DNA from: Lonicera japonica
Lineage: Eukaryota; Streptophyta; Magnoliopsida; Dipsacales; Caprifoliaceae
Assembly: GCA_021464415.1 (NCBI GenBank)
Contig: CM038470.1
Coordinates: 37,814,099 to 37,878,098 of the forward strand
Direction: 5' to 3'
Length of the DNA stretch: 64,000 bases
The notes under the pieces were generated by a model. The model was not told the DNA's origin and made no database searches. It saw nothing but the letters and a program-made list of their open reading frames with translations. Below are positions 15,656 to 53,612 of this stretch, piece after piece (the first letter of the stretch is position 1; each line of letters starts with the position of its first letter). The translations under genes and the position numbers were made by a program.

Positions 15656-16446
15656 GAAAGAGATATGTCCTAGGACTATTCATAGATTATGATTTGTACT
15701 TGAATATCTTATGCTTATTTTCATAGATTATGATTTTATTTTACTTTATATTCTTTTGTAAATAATATATATTAATACTAGTTCATCAAGTACGTGACTT
15801 GGTTGTGGGATACTAGTAATGTTATAATAATATTATTTAGATGTCCCTAATCATGTGTCAATAACCTAGGATCACATTGATATAATGATTAGAGTATGGG
15901 TCAGCTAATGACTATGTTCCACAAGTCATGGATATGGAGATATCAAGCTGAACACATTGATATTTGTTAGGGAACAAAGTATTGGACCGACCCACTTTGG
16001 GGACACTGCGAGGAATGTTACATAATGTCATCAGTGATGTTTCTCATTTGTGATATCGTATTATCCTCAGACCTGAGATCGTCATGGTTACCAACATAGG
16101 GATTAGTATGTCAGGTATCATCAAACGTTGCTCTTGACCGAGTAATTATAAAGATGATGATCAAGCATACTATAAACTATGTAGAGGTATGTGGTTGATC
16201 AAGATGGGATTTGTCACTCTCATATAATGAGAGAGATATCTTTGGGGCCCTTGATAAGTATAATTAATATTTGCATGGCCATGAGCAAATGAGGTGTCAT
16301 TTGTATTAGATTAATTATACTCGGAGATCAAGAAATAAAGATTGAACTATACAAGAATGACACTTGCCTAGTCTTGTGTTCAATCTAGATATCGGTTGAC
16401 AAAAGGAATTAATATGTGGAATATCAATTTAAGGTTGTGTCGTTTT
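15655..16446 (+). mobile_element. Outer LTR, left part (interrupted)
   Basis: Begins TGAAAGAGATATGTCC and runs to the insertion point of the SIRE-like element. It continues at 24087 after the duplicated GTTTT. The joined LTR would be about 1.3 kb. No internal retrotransposon domains accompany it, so it is best read as a solo LTR, probably Copia-type. The lineage is not established. Confidence 0.55.
16442..16446 (+). repeat. Target-site duplication of the SIRE-like element (left)
   Basis: GTTTT; the matching copy is at 24082-24086. Confidence 0.9.
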
Positions 16447-17959
16447 TGTTGACCTTAAAGTCAATTAATCTTATTTTGATAATTACAATAAGTTAATATA
16501 TTGTTATTTAACTCGGTTGTTCCAATGATGATAGCCATTAGCCGATATCTATTCCAACGAAGTGTGACGTCAAACCGATATAGTCAAACTCTCACACAAA
16601 GCTCCACAAATGCTTTCACTCACAAGAAATGAACTCAAATGATCTCCATGTGCTTCACAAAGAATCAAAACCAAGAAAGGATCAAGAACATCAAACAAGT
16701 AAAGATACGCACAAGAAAATCAAGCATCACGAAGACTCGAATTATCATTAAATGGAGTGAGTGCTTAGATTTTATGTAAAGATACTTTATTGATCAAATT
16801 CCTATAGCTCAAACATATTCTTGCATCTTTTAAAGATTGATTCAAACAAGCTTGAAATTGAATTTATTTGAAAAACATCATTTTACAAAAATCGAGTTTC
16901 AAAATAAATTCATATTAATTTTAAATGATCATATTTTAAGCTCTAATAAAAATATGTCTCTTAGAAACATATCTTTGAGGTTCAAAAATTATTATAATTT
17001 TATTTGGAACTAAAATTGCTAAATTGCAAAAATAATTTTATTTTACATATAAAATTCGCTCAATTTTTGCCCAGTTTTGATCTAACGGTGAAATGGAGGC
17101 CTTCTCGAACTCCGATCATTTTGAAATTTTTACAGTAATTAGATAACATCTTCTGGAAATTTTGACTAAAATTTGAGCATGATCCAACGGTTATATTGGG
17201 AGAAATTAACAAAACAAATTTGAATTTTTTTGTCAAAACTAGCTGTTGGAAAGTTTGAAAATGTACACCTTGGAGCCTAAACCTCTCTTAATCATCCCCA
17301 ACGGCCATATGATTTTGCAAGCTATAAATATGATGTCTTAGACATGTTTTAACACACTTGAATCATTCTACAAACTCATTTTACATATATACAAAGTTAT
17401 TCAAGTATTCAATTCATTTAATTGATCAATCTTTCATTTTTGAGCTATATATTTTGATCAATTTTGATATCTCTTAGTGTGAGCTTCATTTGTATTTTGT
17501 CATATACAAGAGAGATATTGTACATTGGTGTTTGTCACCAAAACTCATTTGAATCATAATTGTGAGAGGTGTATATCATAGATTAGCAAGAGGAATTTCT
17601 TGTGAAAGTATTGAAGGTGTTTTCAATACTTATGAGAGTGTGTGATAAGAATACACTTGTAGAGGTTTGATCTTCACTCGGAAGGAGATCGGTTATAGTG
17701 GAAATTCTCGGGGAACTAACCGAGCGTGGAGTAGGGGAACAAGCCGAACCGTGTGGACAAAAAATCTTCGACTTTAATCGGTTCTATCTTTCTATCCCTT
17801 GCTTTATTATATTGTGCTATTTATTCGTTGTGTTTGGATTTAACTTTGTTGTTGATTGCTTGATAAATATAGACATAATATTTTTCAATTAATTTTAAAA
17901 ATCCGATTAAGTTTTAAAATCCCTATTCACCCCCCCTCTAGGGTATTTTTCGACCTACA
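16447..17959 (+). repeat. 5' LTR of the SIRE-like element
   Basis: 1513 bp from TGTTGACCTTAAAG to TTCGACCTACA, equal in length to the 3' copy. A 64-codon open frame at 17698-17892 is also present in the 3' LTR and has no recognisable domain. Confidence 0.92.
17322..17330 (+). promoter_or_regulatory. LTR TATA box (SIRE-like element)
   Basis: CTATAAATA about 875 bp into the LTR; the same sequence is at 23444-23452 in the 3' LTR. Transcription would start roughly 30 bp downstream and define the U3/R border. Confidence 0.6.
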
Positions 17960-17961
17960 AT

Positions 17962-17973
17962 TGGTATCAGAGG
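17962..17973 (+). other. Primer binding site, tRNA-Met type
   Basis: TGGTATCAGAGG lies two bases after the 5' LTR. It is complementary to the CUCUGAUACCA 3' end of plant initiator tRNA-Met except at its last base. Confidence 0.85.
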
Positions 17974-18015
17974 TTGTACTCTTATTTTGATTTAACAATC
18001 TTAGAGTTTACGATC

Positions 18016-21000
18016 ATGTCTATATATCAAGGAACCTGTCTTTCCGAAGGTCTCTCCACCCATAGACCACCTCTATTTGATGGTAAAAATTATAGCTATT
18101 GGAAAAGTAGAATGAGTGTATTTTTACAATCTAGTGATTTTGAACAATGGAGAGTTATACTTGAAGGACCCCATGAAATTACCAAAATAGATGATAGTGG
18201 AAAAATTGTTCCTAAGAAAATGTCCGAGTATGATGAAAATGATATTAAGAAAATTCAATATAATGCTAGAGCCTTAAATGCTTTAAATTGTGCATTAAGC
18301 ATGGATGAATATAACAAAATTTCTAGTTGTAAAACGGCCAAAGAAATTTGGAATAAACTTGAGGTTACCTACGAAGGAACGACTCAAGTTAAAGACGATA
18401 ACATAAATATGCTTGTTCATGATTATGAATTATTTAAAATGGAGCCTAATGAATCTCTTGCTTCCATGTATAGTAGATTTTCTATTATTACTAATGATTT
18501 GGATCTTCTTGGAAAAGTTTATTCTAATGAAGATAAGATAAGAAAAATTCTTAGGATTCTTCCAAAGAAATGGCGACCGAAAGTGACGGCGATTCAAGAA
18601 GCAAAGAATCTCAAAACACTTAGCATGGACGAGCTTTTGGGTTCACTTAAAACCCATGAGAAGGAATTGGCGAGAGAAGAAGAAAGTGATTCAAAAGCCA
18701 AAAAGTCACTAGCTCTCAAAGCAACTCAAGTAGAAGAACTGATGGTAGGAGATGAGGATATGGCTCTTCTTTCTAGAAAATTCATAAAATTTCTAGCTAA
18801 GAAGAAGAAGTTTCAAGGAAAAGGAAACAACTTTGATCCTTCATCAAGAAGGAACAATGATCGATCTATTCAACCAAGAGTTGAAAACGAGGAAGAAAAG
18901 AAGTGTTTCCATTGTCATGAACCAGGGCATTTCAAAACAAATTGCCCGGTTAGAAGAAAGGAAAGAAGAGACAAAAGAGACAAAGCTTTCAAGCAAGTAA
19001 GACACGCCCTCAAAGGCACTTGGAGTGATTCCGAAGAAGGTGAGTCCAATGTCGATTCTAGCGACGAGGAAACGGCAAATCTTTGCCTTATGGCAAGAGA
19101 TGATGAGGTGTGCTTGAAAGCCAAAGGAAGCAAAACCAAGTGGTTCTTGGATAGTGGTTGCTCAAAACACATGACGGGAGATAAGAACAACTTCTTAAGT
19201 CTTATTCCCAAGAAAGGAGGGAATGTGACTTTCGGGGACAACGCCAAGGGCAAAATCATTGGTATAGGTAAGGTTGGTAATAAATCTTCTTATATTGATA
19301 ATGTTTTACTTGTTGACGGTTTAAAACATAACTTGCTTAGTATTAGTCAATTGTGTGATAAAGGTTATGAAGTTATCTTTAAATCCGAATGTTGCATTGT
19401 TAAAAATATTAGTGATAATTCTATCTTGTTTGTTGCTTATAGATCAAATAACGTATATACTCTTGAACTTGATGATTTATCTCAACAAGATGTTAAATGT
19501 TTATCTGTGTTAAATGATGCTTCTTGGTTATGGCATAGAAGATTAGGTCATGCTAATATGGATTTAATTAATAAATTATCTAAAAAGGAATTAGTTAAAG
19601 GATTGCCTAAAACTAAATTTGCTAAAGATAGAATTTGTGATGCATGTCAACTTGGTAAACAACACAAGTCTTCCTTTAAATCTAAGAAAGATATCACTAC
19701 TATTAGACCACTTGATATGTTACATTTAGATTTATTTGGACCTAATTCGGTTGCTAGTTTAGGTGGTAAATTGTATGCCTTTGTGATTGTTGATGATTTT
19801 TCTAGATTTACTTGGGTATTCTTTCTTGCTCATAAAAATGAAACACCTTATGTATTTGCTAAATTCTGTAGAAAAGTTCAAAATGAAAAGGGTGCTTCTA
19901 TTATACATGTTAGAAGTGATAGAGGTAGAGAATTTGATAATATTGATATTGAGAATTTTTGTGATGAGCATGGTATTAATCATAACTTTTCGGCACCTAG
20001 AACTCCTCAACTAAATGGTGTGGTTGAAAGGAAAAATAGATCTCTTCAAGAGATGTCTAGAACCATGTTACATGAACATTCTTTACCGGAATATTTCTGG
20101 GCAGAAGCCGTTAATACCGCATGCTATGTAATTAATCGTGTTATTATTCGTAAAAAGTTAGATAAGACACCTTACGAGTTATGGAATGACAAGAAACCTA
20201 ATATTGCATATTTTAAGGTTTTTGGTTGTAAATGTTTTATTTTAAATGATCGTGATCATTTAGGAAAATTTGATGCTAAATCCGACGAAGGAATATTTCT
20301 TGGATATGCTACTAATAGTAAAGCTTATCGTGTTTATAATAAGAAAAGTTTAGTTGTTCAAGAATCTATGCATGTTGTTTTTGATGAATCTAATCCTTTT
20401 ACACCTATAGTGCATTCCGATGATGATGTTGAAATTATCCAAAAAGTTTCGGATATACAAATTAATGATACATCTAAGGAAGAACCATCGAGTGCTCAAA
20501 CTTCTTCTAAAGAGATAGAAAGTAAGACCGAGCAAAACTCAAATGATTTACCTAAGAGTTGAAAATTTGTGTCCAACCACCCTATTGATCAAATTATTGG
20601 AGAGCCATCTAGTAAGGTCATGACTAGATCATCCTTAAGAGATGTTTGCAATAATGTGGCATTTGTTTCTCAATATGAGCCTAAAAACATAAATGAAGCC
20701 GAACAAGATGAATCTTGGATGATGGCTATGCAAGAAGAGCTCAATCAATTTGAGAGAAATAAAGTGTGGACACTTGTTCCCAAACCAAATGATCATACTA
20801 TTATAGGCACTAAATGGGTATTTCGAAATAAAAAAGATGAAAATGGTGTTATTGTTATAAATAAAGCTAGACTTGTTGCCCAAGGATACAATCAAGAGGA
20901 GGGCATTGATTATGAAGAAACATATGCACCCGTTGCACGTTTAGAAGCTATTCGCATGCTACTTGCTTACTCTTGCTTTAAAAATTTCAAACTATATCAA

Positions 21001-22209
21001 ATGGATGTGAAAAGTGCTTTCTTGAATGGTTTTATTGAAGAGGAAGTTTATGTGAAACAACCTCCCGGTTTTGAAAATCATATTTATCCGGATTATGTAT
21101 TTAAATTATCTAAAGCTTTATATGGTTTAAAACAAGCACCTAGAGCATGGTATGATAGATTAAGTTCGTTTTTGATTAAAAATGGGTTTGTTAGAGGTAA
21201 AATTGATACTACTTTATTTATCAAAAATCATGACAATGACATGCTACTTGTACAAATTTATGTTGATGATATTATATTCGGTTCTACTAACGACAATCTT
21301 TGCAAAGAATTTTCTACTTGTATGCAAAAGGAATTTGAAATGAGCATGATGGGAGAAATGAACTACTTCCTTGGATTACAAGTGAAGCAATGCAAAGAAG
21401 GCATATTCATTAATCAAGAGAAGTACGTAAAGGAGCTTTTGAAGAAATTCGACATGGAAGGCGCAAAGTCCATGAATACTCCTATGAGTTCAACATTAAA
21501 ACTAGACAAGGACGAGAAAGGTAAAAGTGTGGATATCAAGAAATATCGAGATATGATCGGTAGTTTATTATATTTGACGGCCTCTAGACCGGACATTATG
21601 TTTAGTGTATGTCTTTGTGCACGATTCCAAGCGGATCCTAAAGAATCACATTTACTTGCCGTAAAATGAATTTTTCGTTATCTTTCTGGTACTAGTTCAT
21701 TGGGTTTGTGGTATCCAAGAGAAAACACATTTGACCTAATAAGTTATTCCGATGCGGATTTTGCGGGTTGCAAAATTGATAGGAAAAGCACTAGTGGCAC
21801 ATGTCATTTTCTAGGACACGCACTAGTATCTTGGTCAAGTAAGAAACAAAATTCGGTGGCCCTTTCAACGGCTGAAGCGGAATACGTGGCGGCCGGAAGT
21901 TGTTGTGCACAAACTTTATATATTAAACAACAACTAGAAGACTTTGGAATTAGTCTTAGCCACATTCCCATTAAATGTGACAACACAAGTGCCATAAGTT
22001 TGACCAAGAACCCCATACAACACTCACGTACTAAGCACATTGAGATAATATATCATTTTATTCGTGATCATGTGCAAAAAGGTGATGTTGATATTGAATT
22101 CGTTGGCACCGAATCGCAATTTGCGGATATATTCACTAAACCACTTTCGGATGATCATTTTTGCACTATTCGACGTGAACTCGGTATGACTAGAGCTTGT
22201 GATATCTAG
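18016..22209 (+). pseudogene. Copia gag-pol polyprotein, two in-frame stops
   Basis: One reading frame runs from the ATG at 18016 to 22209, with TGA stops at 20560-20562 and 21667-21669. Order: capsid-like gag (about 18080-18800); CCHC zinc knuckle CFHCHEPGHFKTNC (18904-18945); aspartic protease site WFLDSGCSKHM (19141); GAG pre-integrase LWHRRLGH (about 19526); integrase core with DLFGP, RSDRGREF and NGVVERKNR; reverse transcriptase with YVDDIIF (about 21258); RNase H with SDADFAG and STAEAEYVA. Catalytic motifs look preserved. The second stop falls just after the reverse transcriptase, in a position normally occupied by a sense codon in this family; both TGAs fit single C-to-T or G-to-A transitions. 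Translation from the normal start would give gag, protease and integrase only. No env-like ORF follows. Confidence 0.92.
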
Positions 22210-22568
22210 TTTATTCTAAAAAGTTCATAAAAGGGATTGATAATGCTTAATTTTGAGCATACATTATTTTATGCTTAATTTTCTTTTATTTTTATTTTAT
22301 AAAATTTGCTTGCATTAATTTACACATTATTATGAGTATTAACAAATATTTTTGCAGCTTTAAATTGATAATTTCTGATTCCCTACTTTTTGATGAAGAA
22401 AAAGGGGGAGAAGTATGTGTGTTATGCAAGTATTTTTCATTTTAATAATTGCTTGTATATTTTTATCTATGCACCTATTTAGGGGGAGCATATTATTCAT
22501 ATGCTTAAAATTATTATCTTTTTATAAACACACATTAACTCTATTGTCATCATCAAAAAGGGGGAGAT
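22210..22568 (+). other. 3' untranslated leader to LTR with three polypurine tracts
   Basis: Non-coding. AAGAAAAAGGGGGAGAAG (22396-22413), AGGGGGAG (22481-22488) and AAAAAGGGGGAGAT (22555-22568). The last abuts the 3' LTR and is the expected plus-strand primer. Confidence 0.75.
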
Positions 22569-24081
22569 TGTTGACCTTAAAGTCAATTAATCTTATTTTG
22601 ATAATTACAATAAGTTAATATAGTGTTATTTAACTCGGTTGTTCCAATGATGATAGCCATTAGCCGATATCTTTTCCAACGAAGTCTGACGTCAAACCGA
22701 TATAGTCAAACTCTCACACAAAGCTCCACAAATGCTTTCACTCACAAGAAATGAACTCAAATGATCTCCATGTGCTTCACAAAGAATCAAAACCAAGAAA
22801 GGATCAAGAACATCAAACAAGTAAAGATACGCACAAGAAAATCAAGCATCACGAAGACTCGAATTATCATTAAATGGAGTGAGTGCTTAGATTTTATGTA
22901 AAGATACTTTATTGATCAAATTCCTATAGCTCAAACATATTCTTGCATCTTTTAAAGATTGATTCAAACAAGCTTGAAATTGAATTTATTTGAAAAACAT
23001 CATTTTACAAAAATCGAGTTTCAAAATAAATTCATATTAATTTTAAATGATCATATTTTAAGCTATAATAAAAATATGTCTCTTAGAAACATATCTTTGA
23101 GGTTAAAAATTTATTATAATTTTATTTGGAACTAAAATTGCTAAATTGCAAAAATAATTTTATTTTACATATAAAATTCGCTCAATTTTTGCCCAGTTTT
23201 GATCTAACGGTGAAATGGAGGCCTTCTCAAACTCCGATCATTTTGAAATTTTTACAGTAGTTAGATAACATCTTATGGAAATTTTGACTAAAATTTGAGC
23301 ATGATCCAACGGTTATATTGGGAGAAATTAACAAAATAAATTTGAATTTTTTTGTCAAAACTAGCTGTTGGAAAGTTTGAAAATGTACACCTTGGAGCCT
23401 AAACCTCTCTTAATCATCCCCAACGGCCATATGATTTTGCAAGCTATAAATATGATGTCTTAGACATGTTTTAACACACTTGAATCATTCTACAAACTCA
23501 TTTTACATATATACAAAGTTATTCAAGTATTCAATTCATTTAATTGATCAATCTTTCATTTTTGAGCTATATATTTTGATCAATTTTGATATCTCTTAGT
23601 GTGAGCTTCATTTGTATTTTGTCATATACAAGAGAGATATTGTACATTGGTGTTTGTCACCAAAACTCATTTGAATCATAATTGTGAGAGGTGTATCTCA
23701 TAGATTAGCAAGAGGGATTTCTTGTGAAAGTATTGAAGGTGTTTTCAATACTTGTGAGAGTGTGTGATAAGAATACACTTGTAGAGGTTTGATCTTCACC
23801 CGGAAGGAGATCGGTTATAGTGGAAATTCTCGGGGAACTAACCAAGCGCGGAGTAGGGGAACAAGCCGAACCGTGTGGACAAAAAATCTTCGACTTTGAT
23901 CGGTTCTATCTTTCTATCCCTTGCTTTATTATATTGTGCTATTTATTCGTTGTGTTTGGATTTAACTTTGTTGTTGATTGCTTGATAAATATAGACATAA
24001 TATTTTTCAATTAATTTTAAAAATTCGATTAAGTTTTAAAATCTCTATTCACCCCCCCTCTAGGGTATTTTCCGACCTACA
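22569..24081 (+). repeat. 3' LTR of the SIRE-like element
   Basis: 1513 bp, TGTTGACC...CCGACCTACA. It differs from the 5' LTR at roughly 20 scattered positions and no indels were noticed. Confidence 0.92.
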
Positions 24082-37637: not shown

Positions 37638-38612
37638 CTAGGTATTGCCCATGGGAAATGGCACAACTAAACAAAAATATAGACATTTAGAAAATAATGA
37701 AATTGGAAAAAATAGAACCTAGTATCTAAACAGCGTGCAGCCCAAAAGATATATTTAACCCTACCAGAATGAGACGGTTTTCAGTTAAAAAACTAGAATT
37801 TGCCGTTGTTTATTGTATACTTAAATTCGAACCAGTTTCGCCACCTCATTAAGGTTAGGTTGGGCCATTTTGTCCTCCCTAATTATTTACCAATATATAC
37901 AAGAATAAATATAAAAAATTTAATGTACTTATTATATTGGTTTACAAAAGTAATGTGCTTTAAAAAAAATTATCATTTACCAATATACAAAAATAAATAT
38001 TTTAAAAAATTAATGTACCCAATTATAAACAAATGTTACTATTGGTGGTAACATTGGTTTTACAAAAGTAACGTGTTTTAGAAAAAAAAATTAAGTTTGT
38101 AAAATATTAAACAAATTATTAGTATTTTTTAAAATAAAGGAAATGTTGGGCCATTTGCCATTACTAATAATTCACTATATATAAAAAAATAAATATTTCA
38201 AAAAATTTATTTACCCTATTACTATGATACTATTGGTAGCTAGTAACTTGATTTACAAATGTGCTTTTTTAATAAATAAACTTAAATTCTTTCTTTTACG
38301 CATAACTTTAAAATGATAATGAATCTTATCTTATAGGTATCAGGAAGTAGATTTTAAATATGAAAATTTTAATAATTTCTTATTTTTTTTTTTAAATTAA
38401 TACATTTTAAATTTTAAAAAGAAGTTAACAAGAGAGAAAAGTGAAATAGTAGTTGGTGGAATAAGCTAGAGGAAAAAAATGTCGACTTCATTAACTTGAT
38501 ATTTTGAAAACGCATCTAATGGTCCAAAATTTATGGTATTTATTTTAACTAAATATAAGCCATTGATTTGATAAATTAGTGATATAATGTTTCTTTTCCC
38601 TTATAATAAAGA
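37638..38612 (-). mobile_element. Non-autonomous Helitron, copy B
   Basis: About 975 bp. The minus strand ends GGGCAATACCTAG followed by T (37638) and starts TCTTTATTATAAGGG (38612). It contains one hairpin GTTACTATTGGTGGTAAC (38034-38051). It lies at the same site as copy A, so the Helitron predates the duplication. Confidence 0.65.
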
Positions 38613-41511: not shown

Positions 41512-41516
41512 TAACA
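41512..41516 (+). repeat. Target-site duplication of the Athila element (left)
   Basis: TAACA, identical to 53608-53612. Confidence 0.93.
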
Positions 41517-41771
41517 TGATAAACGCCTAATATTGTCATGCATAAGCTCTCTCTCAGAGTCGCTTGACGCGTTTATTGCATTAATTCTGCCTAATTATCC
41601 GCTTATCTTGAGATTAGTGTCTTAGCGAGTTTTGTATCTAATATTGTCCCGCTAGGTGTGCTTTTGTTGTGTTTCTGTGTGTTTATAGGCATAGGATGCA
41701 ATGGCCTTCGAGGAATTGATCAACTACTAGCCAAAAGCTACAAAAGTGCTGATTTAGAGAATTTCCAGAAG

Positions 41772-41868
41772 CATGATCGATCATGGAATCCCATGATCGA
41801 TCATGGTGCAAATAATCTTCAGGCAGAAGACCCCATGATCGATCATGGGTTGGCCATGATCGATCATG
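41772..41868 (+). promoter_or_regulatory. Four-copy palindrome cluster in the U3 of the 5' LTR
   Basis: CATGATCGATCATG, a perfect 14-bp palindrome, at 41772, 41792, 41834 and 41855, i.e. steps of 20, 42 and 21 bp. Some copies extend to 16 bp as CCATGATCGATCATGG. The cluster ends about 95 bp upstream of the TATA-like run, an enhancer-like position. Function is inferred, not known. Confidence 0.75.
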
Positions 41869-41960
41869 GCCCTGGCAACTTGGCCATTTCACACCCAAAA
41901 TGGGCTATTTTAGTGGTTCAAGCTATTTTAGATATTTAGTTAGATATTTTTCTACCTTTT

Positions 41961-41974
41961 TAATATATATATTA
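41961..41974 (+). promoter_or_regulatory. TATA-like run in the Athila LTR
   Basis: TAATATATATATTA, followed by an A/T-rich then purine-rich stretch. It is the best core-promoter candidate in the first part of the LTR. Weak evidence. Confidence 0.4.
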
Positions 41975-43176
41975 TTTCTTTTACATAGAGAAGATATTAT
42001 CTAGTTTTTACATTTTTAGAGTTCTAGAGAGAGGGGAGAGCTCACTTGTTGATTGTTCTTCATTTCTCCATTGTAAGTGCTTAATTTGTAAGAATGATTT
42101 CTTCTTCTATGATATTTGTTCTTGCATCTATTATGGAGTAGTCTATTTCTAAGGTTACGGAGGTTGATTGTGATATGATTTTTGGTGATTAATGGCTCAA
42201 TCCATATCTAAAGTTTGATAAATATTTGTGAATCTTCTTCTTCTTCATCATATCTTCCATTATTTCAAGCTTTCTAGGTATTTTCATATTAAGTTAAGAC
42301 TTTATATGCCTTGTATATTTAGTTCTTGGTTGTTAATGAGCATACAACATATTTCTATGGTTCTAGAAAGCTTGTAGTCCCTTTCCCCCATCCATGGAGT
42401 TTTTCCCTCTTCATAGAAATTATGAATAGTTCTTAAAACTCCATAGATGGATTTTAAATTTGTTTAGCTTATCTTTGATTCATTTATTGATATATTGAGT
42501 GCTTCTTACACTTTATGTGATACTTAGACTCTTTATGTTCTACCATATGTGATAAACGATGAGTTGACTAATTTGTCCCATAAACTTTATTCCGTTTCAT
42601 TGTTAGGATTCACTTTATAATTTTCATTCTTTAAATCATGAGATTACTACACTTGCTTTATGTTAAATCGTTTAATGATGAGTTTGTCATATCTATCTCG
42701 GATTAGCTTCATCGGGAATGGGATGCCTTGCTTCACACCCGTAGCTAAGAGGTAGGAATGATAACCCCGTCTTTGGTGGAATGTCGTATGTCTCTTTCTC
42801 GATATAGCTTCAACTCGGGAATGAGTCGCCTAGCGTCGCACCCTTTGCTATTGAGAGATACACCAACATTCCCCATATTTTGAGAAATCTTGTGTTATAA
42901 TCTTTGTATGAGCTAGTGATCACCGTCTCTTTAATCATAACTAACCTCCAACTACCTTAGTGCTTTCTTATTAATTTTCACAACCATTTTACATTTACGT
43001 TGTTCGATAACCGTTTCATCTTACAAGAATCAGAAAACACTTTAATCCGTAATCCATTCCATTCCTTTTCACTTATCCCTGTGGTTCGACACTCGGACTT
43101 CCGAGACTATATTACTACTTGACGAGCCTGCACTTGGGCTTTAACACAACACACTATTTCGGTTGCGTCAAGTTTT

Positions 43177-43194
43177 TGGCGCCGTTGCCGGGGA
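43177..43194 (+). other. Primer binding site, tRNA-Asp type
   Basis: TGGCGCCGTTGCCGGGGA, complementary to the CCCCGGCAACGGCGCCA 3' end of plant tRNA-Asp, six bases after the LTR. It is the standard primer of Athila elements. Confidence 0.92.
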
Positions 43195-43390
43195 TAAGGC
43201 AAAAAGGCGAATTTCGGGTTTTGTACAAAACCCTTCTGTAAGTATTTCTCTCCATTTAATTAATTTATTTTTCTCCCTTATTTTTGTTTGATTTTGTAGA
43301 ATTCCCGAGGAGCGATTCGAATCGTTGTCCAAGCTCATGCAAGGGCGACTGTTTGTGGACATTCGAATTAGCCCTCCCACATCTCCAAGA

Positions 43391-46300
43391 ATGGCAAACC
43401 AAGGTAGAAACGAGGATCTCGAGAGCGATAATGAAGGGGAAGGGGCCAACAATGTTCCTCCTGTTAGGACCATGAGAGACTACCTTCAACCGCCTCGGGC
43501 AACTTCAAACTCATGCATCGTGCTTCCTGCTGGCCAAGCCGGAGCGTTCTCTTTCAAACCTGGTATGCTTCAACATATCCCTTCTTTTCATGGTATGGAG
43601 TCGGAAAACCCATACTTGCACTTGAAAGACTTTGAAGAAGTCTGCTCCACATTTCGTGAGGCAAATATTAATGAGGATGTCATGCGTTTAAAGCTCTTTC
43701 CTTTCTCCCTAAAAGACAAAGGAAAAATTTGGTTAAATGCTCAAAGACCGCAATCAATTCGGTCTTGGCAAGAGCTTCAAGCGGAATTTCTAAAAAAATT
43801 CTTCCCCGTTCATAGAACCAATGCTTTAAGAAGGGCGATATCAAATTTTTCACCAAAAGAACATGAAAGCTTTTATAAATGTTGGGATAGATACAAGGAC
43901 CTTCTAAACGCATGCCCTCACCATGGTCACGAAACGTGGAGCCTTGTTAGTTTTTTCTATGAATCTCTCACCCCTGAGATGCGTACGTTTGTTGAGACCA
44001 TGTGTAATGGTCAATTCTTGAGTAAGAATCCCGAGGAGGCTTTATTGTATTTTGATGAATTAGCGGAAGGTGCTCAAAATTGGAACACCTATTCCGAGGA
44101 ACCCAAAGCAAAAACTCAAGGAAGGGGTGGGTTGTACCAAGTGTCCAATGAGGATGACATGGGGGCAAGGTTATTCCAATTGTCTAAAAAGGTAGAGGCA
44201 ATGGAAGCAAGTAAGCTTAAGGAGGTCAATGTAGTATCCTCGAGTCAGTTGTGTGTCATTTGCGAAAATTCAGGACACACTACCGAGGATTGTCCTACCA
44301 TTCCCGCTTTTCGGGAAGTCCTCAAAGATCCCGCCCAAGTCAATGTTTTGCACCAGTACAACCAAAATAGCAACCAAAATCGTAACCAAAATGATCCTTA
44401 CTCTCAAAGGTACAATGAGGGATGGAAGAATCACCCCAATTTCAGTTGGGGAGGAAATCAAAGTCAGAACCACAACCAATATCATCAGAACCAAAGGCAA
44501 CAACAACCTCAAAACTCTTTTGTTCCACCTCAAAATCAAAACCCCAACCAAAACTTGGAAGCTTTGTTGAGGTCATTTGTGGACAAAACGGATCGTGATG
44601 TAGGTGAGTTAAAAACTCAAATGTCTAAACTCACCACCGCCCTAGCTACTCAAGAGAAGGGAAAATTCCCCTCTCAACCTTTAGTTAATCCTAGAGGGCA
44701 AGTTCAAGTCATAGAGGGAGGAGAGTCTAGCACCAAGATAGAAGAACTCAAATCTATCACGATCCTGAGAAGTGGAAAGGAGGTAGACAAGACTATTGTT
44801 CCTAAAACCCCCAAGGTGGCGGACATAGTTAAATCTACTAGTGTTGAGGAGTCGGAGGTTGAAAAAGTTGTGAGTGAAGAAAAGAAGAGAGAGGAAGAGA
44901 GACAAGGGAAGGAGGATCTTGAAAAGATCAAAAATGGGATCAAAGTCCCATTTCCGGAGAGATTGAACCAACCATCCAAATCTAACACTGAGATATTGGA
45001 TGTCTTTAGGCAAGTGAAAATCAACATTCCATTGCTTGACGCGGTCAAGCAAATACCTTCGTACGCTAAGTTCCTCAAGGACTTATGTACTACCAAACGA
45101 AGGTTGAATGTCAAGAAAAAGGCCTTTATGGCGGAGCAAGTGAGCTCCCTCATGCAAGGCACGAGAGCCCCCAAGTTTAAAGACCCCGGTTGTCCCACAA
45201 TTTCGTGTATCATAGGAAATTGTAGGATCAAGAATGCATTGTTAGATTTGGGAGCAAGTGTGAATGTGCTCCCATACTCGGTATATCAACAATTGGGGTT
45301 GGGTGAGTTGAAACCCACGAGGGTTACTATTCAATTAGCGGATCGATCCGTTAAGATCCCAAGAGGGATAGTCGAGGATGTGCTTGTCCAAGTCGACAAG
45401 TTTTATTTTCCGGTTGATTTCATCATCCTCGACATGCAACCTGTGTCAAATCCCACCAATGAGATTCCGGTCATTCTCGGACGACCATTTCTTGCTACTT
45501 CTAATGCCATAATAAATTGCAAGAATGGAATCGTGAAGTTAACATTTGGCAACATGACTCTAGAGCTAAACGTGTTCTCTTTGAGCAATCAAAGAGATGA
45601 CGATGATAATGAGGAAAATGAACACGTGAACATGATAGAGTCATGTATCCAAGACCACTTTGTGGCAAATTTTGAATCGGAGTCAACGGAAGGTTATCTA
45701 ACCACTTCCGATGAACCCGAGGATTGTATGCAAGTGTTTTCTTTGTCTGACAAACAGGTTGAATCTTCGGAGAGAGAGGAAAACACATCGTCGTCCACCA
45801 AAACGCACGAAGGAAAGATGGACCTTAAGCTATTGCCGAGCAACTTGAAGTATGCCTTTTTGGGAGCTTCAGACACTTACCCTGTCATCATCTCGTCCGA
45901 ACTTTCGGATGACCAAGAAGGAAGGTTAGTTCATTTGCTTGGCAAATACAAAAAAGCTTTTGGGTGGACTCTGGCCGACCTCCAAGGCATAAGCCCTTTG
46001 ATTTGTACACATAAAATTCACCTGGAGGATGGGGCAAAAACATCGAGACAATTTCAACGCCGGTTGAATCCTAACATGCAAGAAGTGGTTAGGAACGAGG
46101 TGTTGAAATTGTTGGATGCAAAGATCATCTATCCAATCTCGGATAGTAAATGGGTTAGTCCAACTCAAGTGGTACCGAAAAAATCAGGTCTTACGGTAGT
46201 CAAGAACGAATCAAATGAGTTGATTCCGCAAAGAGTCACCACCGGGTGGCGAATGTGCATTGACTACCGTAAACTCAACGAGGCAACTCGTAAAGATCAT

Positions 46301-48712
46301 TTCCCACTACCCTTTTTGGATCAAACTCTAGAAAGAGTAGCGGGCCATGAATATTACTCTTTCCTCGATGGTTTTTCCGGGTACAATCAAATTGAGATTG
46401 ACCTAGATGATCAAGAAAAGACCACCTTTACATGTCCCTTTGGTACCTTCGCTTATCGAAGAATGCCCTTTGGTCTATGTAATGCACCGGCCACTTTCCA
46501 ACGGTGTATGCTGAGTATTTTTAGTGATATGGTGGAAAGGACTTTGGAAGTTTTCATGGATGACTTTACCGTCTATGGTAAGTCATTCGACAATTGCTTG
46601 ACTAACCTGGAACAGGTTTTGGGAAGATGCGTGGAAAAACAATTGGTGTTGAATTGGGAAAAGTGCCATTTTATGGTTACCAAGGGAATTGTTTTGGGGC
46701 ACATCATTTCGTCTGAAGGAATTGAAGTGGATAAAGCTAAAATCGATTTGATTGCTAAACTTCCTACGCCCAAGAATGTCAAAGATGTCCGATCATTTCT
46801 AGGACATGCTGGGTTTTATAGAAGGTTTATCAAGAACTTCAGTTCCATTTCCAAGCCAATGTGCAATCTGCTTCTCAAGGACGCACCGTTTGAGTGGAAC
46901 GCCAAGTGCGAGGAAGCTTTCGTCTCTCTGAAGCATATGCTCACCACTGCACCAATTATGCAGGCACCGGATTGGAGCTTGCCATTCGAGCTCATGTGCG
47001 ACGCAAGTGACTACGCGGTGGGAGCGGTTCTTGGTCAAAGGAAAGACAAGAAACCGGGTGTGATATACTATGCAAGTAGGACTTTGAATGATGCGCAAAT
47101 GAATTACACCACGACAGAGAAAGAGCTCCTAGCAATTGTCTTCGCCCTAGACAAGTTTCGATCCTATTTGATAGGATCGCCAATTGTGATTTTCACGGAT
47201 CATGCGGCGTTGAAGTACCTATTCACAAAGAAAGATGCCAAGCCGCGGCTTTTGAGGTGGATACTCCTATTGCAAGAATTCCATTTGAGCATCAAGGACA
47301 AAAAGGGAGTCGAGAATGTGGTGGCCGATCATCTGTCTCGACTCACTTTTACGAACAACATTGAAGAAAGTCCGATCCAAGATTCGTTTCCAGACGAGCA
47401 ATTATTGGCAATCTCAACGCTCCCATGGTATGCAGACATAGTAAATTATCTTGTAACTGACAAGATACCAAAGTCATGGGGCGCACAAGATAGAAAAAGG
47501 TTTTTGAGCGAAGTGGGTCGATTTTACTGGGATGAACCGTACCTATTTAAATATTGTGCGGATCAGATCATCCGACGGTGCATCCCAGACGAAGAACTGG
47601 AGAGAGTTCTGTCCTTCTGCCATTCCGAAGCTTGCGGAGGACACTTTTCAGCAAAAAAGACAACCGCTAAGATTTTGCAAAGCGGATTGTACTGGCCGTC
47701 GCTCTTCAAGGACGCACAACGCTTCTGCAAGGCATGTCAGAGATGCCAAATGCTTGGAGGGTCCTCCAAGAGGAATATGATGCCTCTCAACCCAATTCTG
47801 ATGATCGAAATCTTCGACTGTTGGGGCATCGACTTCATGGGACCTTTCCCATCATCCTACGGTAACCTTTACATTTTAGTTGCCGTAGATTACGTTTCAA
47901 AATGGGTAGAAGCCCAAGCGTGCAAGAAAAATGATCACAAAGTGGTGATCCGATTTCTGAAAGAACACATTCTTGCACGTTTTGGCACCCCCAAGGCAAT
48001 AATAAGCGATGGCGGTACTCACTTTTGCAATAAACCGTTTCAATCATTAATGCAAAAGTACGGTGTAAATCACAAAGTATCGCTTGCTTATCATCCTCAA
48101 ACTAATGGTCAAGCTGAGTTGGCAAATAGGGAGATCAAACAGATTCTAGAGAAAACGGTAAACCCGAACCGCAAAGATTGGTCGTTGAGACTGACCGATG
48201 CACTTTGGGCTTACCGTACTGCGTACAAAACAACTCTAGATATGTCTCCCTATCGTATAGTGTACGGAAAACCATGTCATTTGCCAGTAGAGTTGGAACA
48301 CAAATCATACTGGGCAATTAAGATGGTTAAGTGCGATTTGACAAAAGCCGGGCTTGACCGTAAGTTGCAAATTAATGAAATTGAGGAGTTAAGAAGAGAT
48401 GCTTATGATAATGCAAAAATAAGCAAGGAACGTGCCAAAATCTTTCATGATAAATCCATTTTGAGGAAAGAATTCAAACTTGGGCACAAAGTTCTTGTTT
48501 ATGACACTCGGTTGCATCTCTTCCCCGGGAAGTTAAAGTCTCGTTGGACCGGCCCCTATGTTGTCCGTCAAGTATTTCCTTTTGGGGCTGTGAATGTTGA
48601 GGATCCCAAAACCGGCTACATTTTCAAGGTGAATGGACAACGTCTTAAGCCGTTTTTGGAATTCCCAGTTCGAGAGGAGTCCACCCCTCTCGAAGACCCG
48701 ACTTATGCCTAA
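43391..48712 (+). CDS. Athila gag-pol polyprotein, intact
   Basis: A 1773-aa polyprotein (ATG at 43391 in a good context, AGAATGG; an in-frame ATG at 43337 is an alternative). It supplies the structural and enzymatic proteins for retrotransposition in cytoplasmic particles and nuclear integration. Visible in order: gag capsid-like region (about residues 40-240); a CCHC knuckle [14 protein letters not shown] (288-301); an Asn/Gln-rich linker; an aspartic protease with [14 protein letters not shown] (DLG in place of the usual DS/TG; Asp about 619); reverse transcriptase with [11 protein letters not shown] and FMDD (about 1055-1058); RNase H from [13 protein letters not shown] (about 1201); integrase zinc module [13 protein letters not shown]...CKACQRC (about 1410-1452) and core with [16 protein letters not shown] and [12 protein letters not shown]. 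Integrase after RNase H is the Ty3/gypsy order. No stops or frameshifts, so probably functional. Confidence 0.95.
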
Positions 48713-48813
48713 AGGCATGGGTCGATTTTGTAAATAATGTTTGTTTTTGTTAGTGTTTTTGAGTTTCAGGAATTGTCATCGAAGAGTCGGGTGTCATTAA
48801 GTCTGAACGGACC

Positions 48814-48825
48814 AAGTTGAGGGGA
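48814..48825 (+). other. Internal polypurine tract 1 (Athila)
   Basis: AAGTTGAGGGGA, about 100 bp after the pol stop. It shares AAGTTGAGGGG with the tracts at 50884 and 51940. Confidence 0.7.
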
Positions 48826-48883
48826 GAAATAAGGTGTTTTAGATCAAAGAAAGCAAAGAAAATTTTTGGCTGGCAGATTGGTC

Positions 48884-49107
48884 CATGATCGATCATGCCC
48901 TACCCATGATCGATCATGGGTGAAAATTTTCTCAGGCAGCATAGAGCATGATCGATCATGTAATTCCATGATCGATCATGGAAGATGGAGCATTTGGTCA
49001 GAAGGCAGCATGATCGATCATGGAAATCCCATGATCGATCATTGTACAAAAGATCAACTGGGCAGAATGACCCATGATCGATCATGGGTATACCATGATC
49101 GATCATG
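48884..49107 (+). promoter_or_regulatory. Eight-copy phased palindrome array
   Basis: CATGATCGATCATG at 48884, 48905, 48947, 48967, 49009, 49030 (last base T instead of G), 49073 and 49094. Steps are 21, 42, 20, 42, 21, 43 and 21 bp. Repeating unit of about 63 bp: palindrome, 6-7-bp spacer, palindrome, 28-29-bp spacer. The long spacers share only a GGCAG core and are otherwise diverged, while the palindromes are almost invariant. It lies about 300 bp upstream of the env-position gene. Confidence 0.8.
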
Positions 49108-49403
49108 GTCCCGTAATAAAACAGGGGCGCCGTTTCTAAAACCCCCATTTTGCACTTCCCCTTCTCCCAAATCTCTTCCAAACCCTAGCCCCCCCCCCTT
49201 TTTGATCCCAAACCTTCCCCAAACACCATTACCAACCTCCCCCACCTAGAATCAACCCTCAAATCTTCCAATTTCAAACCCCAATCATCAAACCCATCTC
49301 AAAAATCACCTTTTCCCTCTCTCATCACCATTTTCGAGCCCTAGCATCTCAAGGCTTCAAATTCCTCCTATCCACCTCCTCTAAAGCATAGCACTCCTCC
49401 ATT

Positions 49404-50603
49404 ATGTCTTCCTCAAACCCTCCCACTAAGCCGCTTACCATTGAAGCCGCGAGAGGCGGCTATCGCGGATTTCGGAGCCGTCAAGAATTTGAGTGGTGGA
49501 ACTATGCCTTCAAAACGAGGACGGTAGTGATAGAGAGGCCGGTATTCATCGGTACGCTGGACGATTTCCCCCAGCGAGCAACGTTTGAGCAATATCCGGG
49601 GTGGATTAACTACTTGCGTCAACCAGGTACTCAATGTAATCTCACCATTTGTCGTGAATTTATTGCAAGTTTGATTCAAGTTCCCGATACACCATATACA
49701 TATGTAGCTCATGTTCGAGGCAGAACGGTTCCGTTTAACCTCGAAGTTTTGACTGAGATTACGGGAATCTCAGCTTTGCCACCTAATGCTCATGACCTCC
49801 CCTATTCGGACACTACCAACTATTTAGAGCCGATGCCTAACGATCTAGCCACATTTCTAGCCGGTGAACCCAGAGAATGGATTGGGAACCAATTCGATAG
49901 GAGCCACATACGTGAGGGATTTAGAACTCTTTGGCTGGTAATTGCCAACGCTTTGGACCCAACTTCCCATACCCAGCACATTTACCCGTCTCAGGCTTAT
50001 GTACTATACGCCATAGCAACGAACAAGCGCTGCTGCTTGTTGCGTCATATCATCGGGCGAATAGCGCGAATCATCGATTTGGTCGCCCACAATGAAACAA
50101 TCAAATTTGGATCGTTGATCACTAAGGTCTGTTTGCGAGCGGGGGTAATTGAGAGAGCCGACGATGAGAAGAAAATGCCTAGGGCACCGCTGAATAGGTC
50201 CACCCAAACTCGAGCCGCTGGTCAACTGAGGAACAGGCCGAGTTCTTCCACAGCCGCACCACAACAGGGTGATAGCGAAGAAGAAGGGGCTGAAGAAGCA
50301 GGAGCGGATGTTCCGGGTACATCAAGGCGTAGAAGAAGGGCAAGCTCTGGGCCTGTGGATGACAATAGGGAATTCATGAGAGAGCAGTTTGAGCAGATGA
50401 CTGCTTTGATGCAGACCGGGTTTGCTAGCGTCAATGAGAGGGTAGAGATTATGGTATTGCGTCAGGACCGTTTGGAGGCCGATATTGCAGCCCAGGTCGA
50501 GGCACGAGTTGCAGCTCAGATGGCGACCCAGCAAGAGTTCATACGCCAGCAGTTCGAGGCGTTGTATGGTCGTTTTCCACCACCCCCACCTCCCGACATG
50601 TGA
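49404..50603 (+). CDS. Third ORF of Athila in the env-like position
   Basis: An intact 399-aa protein between pol and the 3' LTR, where Athila elements often carry an env-like gene. The N-terminal half (about residues 10-235: RGGYRGFRSRQEFEWWNYAF, ICREFIASLIQVPDTPY, VLTEITGISALP) resembles the 'putative plant transposon protein' domain of retrotransposon third ORFs. A low-complexity acidic/Arg linker follows (about 270-310, with RRRRR). The C-terminal 80 residues are Gln/Glu/Ala-rich and likely a coiled coil (MREQFEQMTALMQTGFASVN), ending in poly-Pro. I see no signal peptide and no clear transmembrane segment, so an envelope role is not supported. The basic linker and coiled coil would fit nucleic-acid binding or oligomerisation, but that is inference. 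It may be expressed from a spliced or separate transcript. Confidence 0.85.
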   Translation: MSSSNPPTKPLTIEAARGGYRGFRSRQEFEWWNYAFKTRTVVIERPVFIGTLDDFPQRATFEQYPGWINYLRQPGTQCNLTICREFIASLIQVPDTPYTYVAHVRGRTVPFNLEVLTEITGISALPPNAHDLPYSDTTNYLEPMPNDLATFLAGEPREWIGNQFDRSHIREGFRTLWLVIANALDPTSHTQHIYPSQAYVLYAIATNKRCCLLRHIIGRIARIIDLVAHNETIKFGSLITKVCLRAGVIERADDEKKMPRAPLNRSTQTRAAGQLRNRPSSSTAAPQQGDSEEEGAEEAGADVPGTSRRRRRASSGPVDDNREFMREQFEQMTALMQTGFASVNERVEIMVLRQDRLEADIAAQVEARVAAQMATQQEFIRQQFEALYGRFPPPPPPDM

Positions 50604-51953
50604 TGCGATTTGCCAAATCCTGAAAACTCTTTTATTAGTTATATTTACGCTTAGCTTTATTTTATTTCTTTTTGGGTTGTATTAGAACTTTGACATGATG
50701 TTAACTTTAAAACTTGGTTTTAATGATTGAATGTTATGGTTTTTGCTTTTGAATTCTAATTCTAACCCGTTTTGTGAATAGTTTTTGTTTATGTCTTATT
50801 TTTGTCTCATGGGAAGCAAAGCCAAAGTAGCCCTTCCGTGCGTTGTTATTTATTCTCTTTACATTGAGGACAATGTGTGTTTCAAGTTGAGGGGGGTACG
50901 TTTATTTTGTGTTTATTTTGTTTGGCTTGCTATCAGTCATTCCCATGAGTAGAAGAGATATGTTCAAAATTTTTTTTGAGAAGTTTGAAAATTGATGATT
51001 GATTGATATTTTGTTCGATGTAGATTATTATTTCATTAGCTTTTGGCTTGAAATCTTTGATCTAGATAGGAATTTGAATGATAATCTAAATTGCCTTGCT
51101 CCACTTAGTCTCATATCCCGTTATATTCTCTTGCTCCACATGCTAGATTGCTTTGGTTGTTTCCAATTCGGTAATAACACTTAGATTTATTTTCATTGAG
51201 AGAAGAGGAATTTTTGTCCAAAAATGATGGAAGCTCTTTCGAAAAGATCCTCCAATGAGAGGACAAAAGCATAGCACTTTGATAACTTGGATGACTTTTA
51301 TCCTAATATTGACTTAAAGCTTCACTTGACTAAATATTAAGTCTCTTTGTCTAATATTACGGATGGGTAAAGGTTACCATATGGGAAAGGGTGAATAGCT
51401 TCCTTTAAGCTCCAATGAATGAGCAGTAATGAGAAATTTCATAAGTGAGACCGCTGCCCCTCATAGAGATGAAAACCGCCCTGATCTAATTTAGCAAAAA
51501 TTTCCAAGAAAAGATAAAGAAAGTGTTTAGAATTGATAAATCTCGGAGCTTTTGTTTTTGAAAAAGTTCTCTCTTCCTTCTCAAATGACTATGACTCTTT
51601 GTGTTTATATTGAATTGCTTGAATCGAAGTCTAGTATATGAGCATTGGAGAATATGGGATTGTGTTCTAAAGGAGATAGGCGAATTAGACAATCATTCAA
51701 AAGTCCATCGTTCTGGAAAATTGATAGTAATGCCTTTTGCTTTGCAAATTGAAACTTGAATCTTCATTCTCATCATTCATCATGATCAAACTCCTAATGT
51801 TTGTAAGTATCATTTCTGAAAACCTTCACGAGATGCAACTCGTCTTCTTTGGGAACTTAGAAGTTAACAACTTTTTGTATAGCGTAGTGCTTTTGTAATT
51901 ATTATATATTTTTGTCTTGCTAAGGGACTAGCAAGAGATAAGTTGAGGGGAGT
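50604..51953 (+). other. Athila 3' non-coding region
   Basis: About 1.35 kb without an ORF of note, bounded by polypurine tracts AAGTTGAGGGGGG (50884-50896) and AAGTTGAGGGGAG (51940-51952). The second abuts the 3' LTR and is the plus-strand primer. Confidence 0.75.
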
Positions 51954-53607
51954 TGATAAACGCCTAATATTGTCATGCATAAGCTCTCTCTCAGAGTCGC
52001 TTGACGCGTTTATTGCATTAATTCTGCCTAATTATCCGCTTATCTTGAGATTAGTGTCTTAGCGAGTTTTGTATCTAATATTGTCCCGCTAGGTGTGCTT
52101 TTGTTGTGTTTCTGTGTGTTTATAGGCATAGGATGCAATGGCCTTCGAGGAATTGATCAACTACTAGCCAAAAGCTACAAAAGTGCTGATTTAGAGAATT
52201 TCCAGAAGCATGATCGATCATGGAATCCCATGATCGATCATGGTGCAAATAATCTTCAGGCAGAAGACCCCATGATCGATCATGGGTTGGCCATGATCGA
52301 TCATGGCCCTGGCAACTTGGCCATTTCACACCCAAAATGGGCTATTTTAGTGGTTCAAGCTATTTTAGATATTTAGTTAGATATTTTTCTACCTTTTTAA
52401 TATATATATTATTTCTTTTACATAGAGAAGATATTATCTAGTTTTTACATTTTTAGAGTTCTAGAGAGAGGGGAGAGCTCACTTGTTGATTGTTCTTCAT
52501 TTCTCCATTGTAAGTGCTTAATTTGTAAGAATGATTTCTTCTTCTATGATATTTGTTCTTGCATCTATTATGGAGTAGTCTATTTCTAAGGTTACGGAGG
52601 TTGATTGTGATATGATTTTTGGTGATTAATGGCTCAATCCATATCTAAAGTTTGATAAATATTTGTGAATCTTCTTCTTCTTCATCATATCTTCCATTAT
52701 TTCAAGCTTTCTAGGTATTTTCATATTAAGTTAAGACTTTATATGCCTTGTATATTTAGTTCTTGGTTGTTAATGAGCATACAACATATTTCTATGGTTC
52801 TAGAAAGCTTGTAGTCCCTTTCCCCCATCCATGGAGTTTTTCCCTCTTCATAGAAATTATGAATAGTTCTTAAAACTCCATAGATGGATTTTAAATTTGT
52901 TTAGCTTATCTTTGATTCATTTATTGATATATTGAGTGCTTCTTACACTTTATGTGATACTTAGACTCTTTATGTTCTACCATATGTGATAAACGATGAG
53001 TTGACTAATTTGTCCCATAAACTTTATTCCGTTTCATTGTTAGGATTCACTTTATAATTTTCATTCTTTAAATCATGAGATTACTACACTTGCTTTATGT
53101 TAAATCGTTTAATGATGAGTTTGTCATATCTATCTCGGATTAGCTTCATCGGGAATGGGATGCCTTGCTTCACACCCGTAGCTAAGAGGTAGGAATGATA
53201 ACCCCGTCTTTGGTGGAATGTCGTATGTCTCTTTCTCGATATAGCTTCAACTCGGGAATGAGTCGCCTAGCGTCGCACCCTTTGCTATTGAGAGATACAC
53301 CAACATTCCCCATATTTTGAGAAATCTTGTGTTATAATCTTTGTATGAGCTAGTGATCACCGTCTCTTTAATCATAACTAACCTCCAACTACCTTAGTGC
53401 TTTCTTATTAATTTTCACAACCATTTTACATTTACGTTGTTCGATAACCGTTTCATCTTACAAGAATCAGAAAACACTTTAATCCGTAATCCATTCCATT
53501 CCTTTTCACTTATCCCTGTGGTTCGACACTCGGACTTCCGAGACTATATTACTACTTGACGAGCCTGCACTTGGGCTTTAACACAACACACTATTTCGGT
53601 TGCGTCA
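51954..53607 (+). repeat. 3' LTR of the Athila element
   Basis: 1654 bp, no difference from 41517-43170 detected on reading. The palindrome cluster is at 52209, 52229, 52271 and 52292. Confidence 0.94.
52209..52305 (+). promoter_or_regulatory. Four-copy palindrome cluster, 3' LTR
   Basis: Same four CATGATCGATCATG copies and spacing (20, 42, 21) as in the 5' LTR. Confidence 0.75.
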
Positions 53608-53612
53608 TAACA
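53608..53612 (+). repeat. Target-site duplication of the Athila element (right)
   Basis: TAACA, after which the decayed Copia leader resumes ('tttaataggtttacatatg'). Confidence 0.93.

What the first reader, a model, noticed from the sequence alone, without database searches (positions are those of the whole stretch)
48884..49107. Helically phased array of eight near-perfect 14-bp palindromes inside a young Athila element
CATGATCGATCATG occurs eight times in 224 bp, seven exact and one with a terminal change. Start-to-start steps are 21, 42, 20, 42, 21, 43 and 21 bp, i.e. close to two or four turns of B-DNA, so all sites face the same side of the helix. Spacers are diverged apart from a GGCAG core in the long ones, while the palindromes are conserved. 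That is what repeated dimer-binding sites under selection look like, rather than a simple decaying tandem repeat. The array sits between pol and the third gene, an unusual place for such an element. A self-encoded or host factor binding these sites would be a new regulatory system for Athila-type elements.
Basis: partly seen in the sequence, partly recalled or inferred. Interest (0 to 1): 0.9.

Follow-up and report, generated by a model that had tools for sequence, protein, structure and literature searches.

The report
Shared palindrome doublets in plant retrotransposons
A 14-base palindrome, mostly in pairs two DNA turns apart, is repeated thousands of times in this plant genome, at the places examined mainly inside the control regions of unrelated jumping genes, which points to a common switch protein that several kinds of retrotransposon depend on.

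Summary
The array is real: eight CATGATCGATCATG sites (seven exact) at 48884-49107. The element is a Ty3/Athila-type retrotransposon, 41517-53607, with identical LTRs. In the window's copy and 20 others (of 104 scored ORF3 matches), 4 of 112 palindrome columns vary against 57 of 112 spacer columns, so the sites are conserved in the replicating lineage. After insertion they decay like the rest of the LTR. The genome holds 17,576 exact palindromes, reversed control 9, and 6,300 exact doublets with 6-8 bp between sites. Doublets also lie in Ty1/copia LTRs without detectable flank similarity to Athila. So this is not Athila-only: the conserved unit is a doublet two helical turns long; spacing between doublets varies (41-43, 47, 50-51 bp). 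Best reading: sites of a dimeric, probably host-encoded regulator in LTR enhancers, reused before ORF3 as a likely internal promoter. Sirevirus palindromic repeats have the same architecture, so this is a new variant of a known kind. The factor is unidentified; ORF3 itself stays possible.

The parts
41512..41516 (.). 5-bp target-site duplication TAACA, 5' copy
   Evidence: read from the sequence printed
41517..43170 (+). 5' LTR, 1654 bp
   Evidence: identical to 51954-53607
41772..41868 (.). LTR array: four exact CATGATCGATCATG in two doublets, steps 20, 42, 21; starts 255 bp into the LTR, ends 95 bp before TATATAT
41964..41972 (+). TATA-box-like sequence of the LTR promoter (role inferred)
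43292..48712 (+). gag-pol open frame: gag, protease, RT, RNase H, integrase in Ty3 order
48814..48824 (+). polypurine-tract copy AAGTTGAGGGG upstream of the internal array
   Evidence: exact match
48884..49107 (.). internal array: four doublets, eight palindromes, seven exact
48884..48918 (.). doublet 1 (sites 48884, 48905)
48947..48980 (.). doublet 2 (sites 48947, 48967)
49009..49043 (.). doublet 3 (sites 49009, 49030; the second ends in T); with doublet 4 the half closest to the LTR array
49073..49107 (.). doublet 4 (sites 49073, 49094)
49108..49403 (+). C/T-rich, G-poor stretch without ATG between array and ORF3; candidate 5' leader of a separate ORF3 mRNA
   Evidence: role inferred
49404..50603 (+). 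ORF3, 399 aa, PF20167 (Transposase_32, putative plant transposon protein), C-terminal long helix in a low-confidence model
50884..50894 (+). second polypurine-tract copy
51940..51950 (+). terminal polypurine tract next to the 3' LTR
51954..53607 (+). 3' LTR
52209..52305 (.). array of four palindromes in the 3' LTR
53608..53612 (.). target-site duplication TAACA, 3' copy
   Evidence: read from the sequence printed

Best explanation
The array is one instance of a genome-wide cis-regulatory module of LTR retrotransposons. The unit is a doublet of the dyad site CATGATCGATCATG with 6-8 bp between the sites, so that two protein dimers can sit side by side on the same face of the helix. One or more doublets lie in the LTR of Ty3/Athila and of unrelated Ty1/copia elements (before a TATA box where one was found), where a dimeric DNA-binding protein, most likely host-encoded, would act as enhancer factor. 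In the Athila element the module also stands between pol and ORF3, where it would drive a separate ORF3 mRNA starting in the ATG-free leader after the array. Shown: sites, spacing, conservation, presence in both superfamilies, position. Inferred: protein binding, host origin of the factor, internal promoter.
For: Conservation in the replicating lineage: 4 of 112 palindrome columns vary against 57 of 112 spacer columns in 21 sequences; LTR array against homologous internal half 1 of 56 against 12 of 41 substitutions, one-sided p 1e-4. No special protection after insertion: the LTR pairs of five elements differ at 5 of 182 palindrome and 67 of 3174 other positions, p 0.59, so conservation arises among copies that replicate. 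Present in unrelated elements: an open copia polyprotein frame with RVT_2 lies between two LTRs that each hold a doublet in L021; the L021 polyprotein matches 11 of 20 fetched loci, over its whole length in five (L017 96%, L018 80%, L019 70%, L020 94%, L021 itself); and no flank match links the copia and the Athila groups at E <= 1e-6 and 60 bp or more. Fixed doublet length with diverse spacers: of 59 steps in 29 arrays 39 are 20-22 bp, none 23-40; 21 distinct spacers among the first 50 of 6,300 doublets. Dyad symmetry runs on into the flanks with different base pairs: 58 distinct flank pairs, permutation p 0.006. The leader has no ATG in 19 of 21 copies, while the array upstream of it has 17 in the window.
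Against: No binding protein is known and no expression, footprint or methylation data were available. The copies are related by descent, so the p-values overstate. Exchange of LTR modules between superfamilies, rather than repeated selection, may explain part of the sharing: GGCAG lies beside 13 of 29 arrays against 1.6% at random places. Only the 20-22 bp step is general; 47 and 50-51 bp steps break array-wide phasing. No clear TATA box follows the internal array (only TAATAAA at 49114), and the motif used found none in the LTRs of L017, L020 and L021. The leader is G-poor, so lack of ATG in the window alone is not significant (P0 0.26). A splice-acceptor-like sequence before the array (48764-48770) leaves a spliced ORF3 mRNA open. 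The loci come from the first listed places on one contig, not from a random sample.
Confidence: 0.55

Rival explanations
1. Self-encoded factor: the ORF3 protein (or a relative) binds the palindromes as a dimer and counteracts silencing or activates transcription, as VANC proteins do on their motif arrays; copia elements with the same site exploit it in trans.
Confidence: 0.17
2. RNA function: neighbouring palindromes pair in the transcript to form hairpins that act in packaging, translation or small-RNA production; DNA binding is incidental.
For: Two neighbouring sites are also an inverted repeat with a 6-8 nt loop. The array folds far better than shuffles: z -11.7 internal, -6.75 LTR. Palindrome-rich LTR regions of maize Sireviruses are small-RNA hotspots (PMC5311732, passages).
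Against: A hairpin needs complementary arms only, not twelve copies of one sequence nor a fixed 20-22 bp step. In the window's element the LTR array lies upstream of the TATA-like sequence, so the 5' copy would not be transcribed from that promoter (the 3' copy would). Dyad extension is within single sites; across the two sites of a doublet it is 0-1 bp.
Confidence: 0.12
3. Mutational homogenisation: reverse-transcriptase template switching between palindromes keeps them identical; no function.
For: Two of 20 copies have seven sites, with step lists that fit loss of exactly one doublet step; palindromes as template-switch sites are recalled. Symmetric flank extension is also what palindrome correction gives.
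Against: It does not explain one and the same sequence and spacing in copia and Athila LTRs, nor divergent spacers beside near-invariant 14-mers.
Confidence: 0.1
4. Spread of one LTR module by recombination between families, maintained as a neutral passenger.
For: Similar spacers and boxes in both superfamilies (GGTATAC, GGTTGCC/GGTTGGC, GGCAG).
Against: A passenger would diverge with its spacers; it does not.
Confidence: 0.06

Closest known systems
Sirevirus repeated motifs (RM), Bousios et al. 2010, PMC2829016 (abstract and sections 6, 9, 10, 19 read)
   Same: Many near-identical palindromic boxes in the LTR upstream of TATA, additional boxes before the env-like gene, diverged flanks, and several polypurine-tract copies between pol and 3' LTR. 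Tobacco Tnd-1 has ACAATCGATTGT, with the same ATCGAT core.
   Different: Those are Ty1/copia Sireviruses and all but Tnd-1 have a CGG-CCG core; there most extra polypurine tracts lie after the env-like gene. Here a Ty3/Athila and a compact copia family (about 5 kb) share one identical ATCGAT-centred palindrome in a fixed doublet.
[quoted passage not shown] 2016 (not held; known from passages in PMC5311732 and PMC10760457)
   Same: Palindrome clusters in the LTR regulatory region.
   Different: No internal array is mentioned in the passages seen; the small-RNA role is untested here.
VANC/VANDAL anti-silencing systems, PMC5735166 and PMC10398659 (passages)
   Same: Arrays of a short motif in non-coding parts of a transposable element that also encodes an additional protein; an unrelated element may share the motif.
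   Different: VANDALs are DNA transposons, the motifs are not palindromes, and binding by the encoded protein is shown there but not here.
Maize Grande gene23 with its own promoter (title in reference lists; passage in the review PMC7264820)
   Same: An accessory gene between pol and 3' LTR with a promoter of its own.
   Different: Antisense gene; no palindromic array is mentioned in the passages seen.

Membership tests
Athila (Ty3/gypsy) | RT and RNase H before integrase | tested here: met
   Pfam order RVT_1 979-1139, RNase H 1202-1330, rve 1510-1602
Athila (Ty3/gypsy) | third ORF between pol and 3' LTR of the PF20167 type | tested here: met
   PF20167 reported for a sunflower Athila ORF in PMC11728184 (passages)
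Athila (Ty3/gypsy) | placement in the Athila clade by RT phylogeny | not tested
   no tree was built; the primer-binding-site type was not tested either
Sirevirus RM system | repeated palindromic boxes in the LTR and before the env-like gene | tested here: met
Sirevirus RM system | CGG-CCG core | tested here: not met
   core is ATCGAT; the Sirevirus Tnd-1 also lacks CGG-CCG
Sirevirus RM system | element is a Ty1/copia Sirevirus | tested here: not met
   the window's element is Ty3-type
Sirevirus RM system | multiple polypurine-tract copies after pol | tested here: met
   AAGTTGAGGGG exact at 48814, 50884, 51940; not the Sirevirus octamer
VANC-type anti-silencing system | encoded protein with a DUF1985 domain, by sequence profile | tested here: not met
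   Pfam at E <= 10 lists only PF20167 for the first 282 residues of ORF3, at E <= 0.001 for the whole of it; weak matches can be missed
VANC-type anti-silencing system | shared fold with VANC21 | tested here: inconclusive
VANC-type anti-silencing system | encoded protein binds the array and removes methylation | not testable with these tools
   needs EMSA, ChIP-seq, bisulfite sequencing

The most novel reading that the evidence does not exclude
A single cis-regulatory code, a doublet of one palindrome with a 20-22 bp step, has been adopted by retrotransposons of both superfamilies in one plant genome, so that a single dimeric regulator, of the host or encoded by Athila ORF3, controls thousands of LTRs and, in Athila, an internal ORF3 promoter.
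Probability: 0.4. Interest if true: 0.85.

Novelty: new variant of a known kind. Interest (0 to 1): 0.72.

Why it matters
How unrelated retrotransposons come to obey, or exploit, the same regulator is an open question, and the 2010 Sirevirus paper could name no common binding factor for its palindromes (PMC2829016, section 19). Here one short sequence with a fixed doublet geometry is found in two superfamilies, is the least variable part of the 604-bp region compared, and can be used directly as bait. Finding the factor would tell whether the host's own regulator or a transposon-encoded one acts on these LTRs.

Tried and rejected
Relatives outside this genome: a palindrome-pair scan of viral contigs gave nothing, of genome contigs one Streptomyces stretch; gag-pol and the ORF3 alignment found no relatives in viral contigs. 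A protein search with the frame that runs through the array found nothing. Protein searches gave five ORF3 relatives, three of them from Lonicera macranthoides; their DNA could not be reached, so conservation in other species is untested.

Array-wide helical phasing as the general rule was rejected: resultant length 0.96 at 10.5 bp for the internal array and 0.97 for the LTR array of the window, but 47 and 50-51 bp steps elsewhere. ORF3 as proven binder was rejected: the VANC21 match did not recur. Foldseek gave no other trustworthy match. Rfam gave no family over the arrays at gathering score. A whole-genome count of doublet spacings from 1 to 30 bp could not be had: the genome search did not complete.

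Full report
What is there. The eight palindromes are as described. They belong to an LTR retrotransposon of 12,091 bp, 41517-53607, with LTRs identical over 1654 bp and a TAACA duplication on either side (sequence printed). One open frame carries gag, protease, RT, RNase H and integrase in Ty3 order, and a second, ORF3, the PF20167 domain. Each LTR holds four more exact palindromes, 255 bp from its 5' end and 95 bp before TATATAT. Both halves of the internal array align with the LTR array, the second half better (86% over 107 bp against 81% over 102 bp; alignment), so the arrays have a common origin; the direction of copying is unknown. AAGTTGAGGGG occurs three times on the plus strand of the element, each time exact and with no one-mismatch copy: before the internal array, after ORF3 and at the 3' LTR.

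Is it under constraint? Of 104 scored ORF3 matches in the genome (1,564 candidates) I fetched the upstream 604 bp of 20, chosen by hand over 94-100% identity (one of the 20 ORF3 copies has a stop). Eighteen keep eight sites at up to 3 mismatches and two keep seven, with step lists that fit loss of one doublet step. With the window's copy, nucleotide diversity is 0.0042 in palindromes, 0.223 in short spacers, 0.162 in long spacers, 0.111 upstream and 0.094 in the leader. Four of 112 palindrome columns vary against 57 of 112 spacer columns. The 29 palindrome columns with gaps were counted on the remaining letters, so lost sites and end deletions do not enter. The copies are related by descent, so the p-value (4e-17) overstates. 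Between the LTR array and its internal homologue 1 of 56 palindrome and 12 of 41 spacer positions differ. The opposite result belongs beside it: between the two LTRs of single elements, palindromes differ as often as the rest, 5 of 182 against 67 of 3174 positions in five elements (two aged elements, L018 and L020, give all five). So copies decay freely after insertion, and the constraint acts on the lineages that go on replicating.

Not only Athila. The genome (886 Mb) holds 17,576 exact palindromes, the reversed control 9, and 6,300 exact doublets with 6-8 bp between sites, control 0. Twenty loci of about 10 kb around the first listed places on one contig (not a random sample) were fetched. 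With the window they hold 29 arrays at up to 2 mismatches, several of them the two LTRs of one element and one a single site. By flanks they fall into a copia-type group (17 arrays), a second LTR group (5), the Athila LTR (3), the Athila internal array (2) and two single arrays. Arrays stand in both repeats around a copia polyprotein in L017, L018, L020 and L021. No match of 60 bp or more at E <= 1e-6 links the copia and Athila flanks. The second group may be another Athila-like family (a 57% identical gag-pol piece about 3 kb away in L032); this is unsettled.

Geometry. Of 59 steps, 39 are 20-22 bp, 15 are 41-43, two are 47, three are 50-51, none 23-40. A 20-22 bp step is present in all six flank groups, though two arrays (L024, L033) show none. 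A doublet of two turns is thus general; array-wide phase holds in the window (resultant 0.96 and 0.97 at 10.5 bp) but not in all families. Among the first 50 listed doublets 34 have 7, 10 have 8 and 6 have 6 bp between sites, with 21 distinct spacers. Symmetry runs on into the flanks of many sites with different base pairs: 12 sites of the window, permutation p 0.007-0.02; 58 distinct flank pairs, p 0.006 overall, position 10 p 0.006, position 9 p 0.06, position 8 p 0.18, position 11 p 0.80. GGCAG stands beside 13 of 29 arrays against 1.6% at random places.

Relation to what is known. Sireviruses have palindromic boxes in LTRs and before the env-like gene, and several polypurine tracts (PMC2829016; abstract and sections 6, 9, 10, 19 read). 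The architecture is the same; superfamily, core sequence and presence in both superfamilies differ. Searches of the open library for the motif itself (0 papers), for Athila with palindromes (24 papers, 20 listed) and for Lonicera, Athila, LTR retrotransposon and palindromes (26 papers with at least three of the four, 10 listed) showed no title describing this. Papers under other licences were not searched, and passages of other papers named here are what I saw of them.

Host.

Noticed in passing
window 43823-43928, minus strand: Rfam snoR71 (RF00097) match, 48 bits (gathering score 40), antisense inside gag.
   Followed up: no
window 16446-24081: Second LTR element with 98.7% identical 1.5-kb direct repeats; three consecutive open stretches of one frame, separated by two stops, that look copia-like by eye. 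No palindrome copy within 3 mismatches in it.
   Followed up: no
L001 2148-2181: Streptomyces stelliscabiei has an exact CATGATCGATCATG pair 6 bp apart, about 15 bp after a TAG that may be a stop codon (frame not checked); perhaps a terminator hairpin.
   Followed up: partly
window 48814, 50884, 51940: Three exact polypurine-tract copies in one Athila-type element; multiple copies are described for Sireviruses.
   Followed up: partly
window 48884-49107 and L037-L056: Spacers inside the array vary more (pi 0.16-0.22) than the flanks (0.09-0.11).
   Followed up: no
window 11797 and 11918: GTTACCATTGGTGGTAAC, an 18-mer with 7-bp inverted arms, in a 121-bp tandem repeat; related repeats near 38000 and 39000.
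   Followed up: no
L025 4904-5081: Six decayed palindromes with steps 20, 51, 21, 50, 21 in an array that groups with no other by flanks.
   Followed up: no
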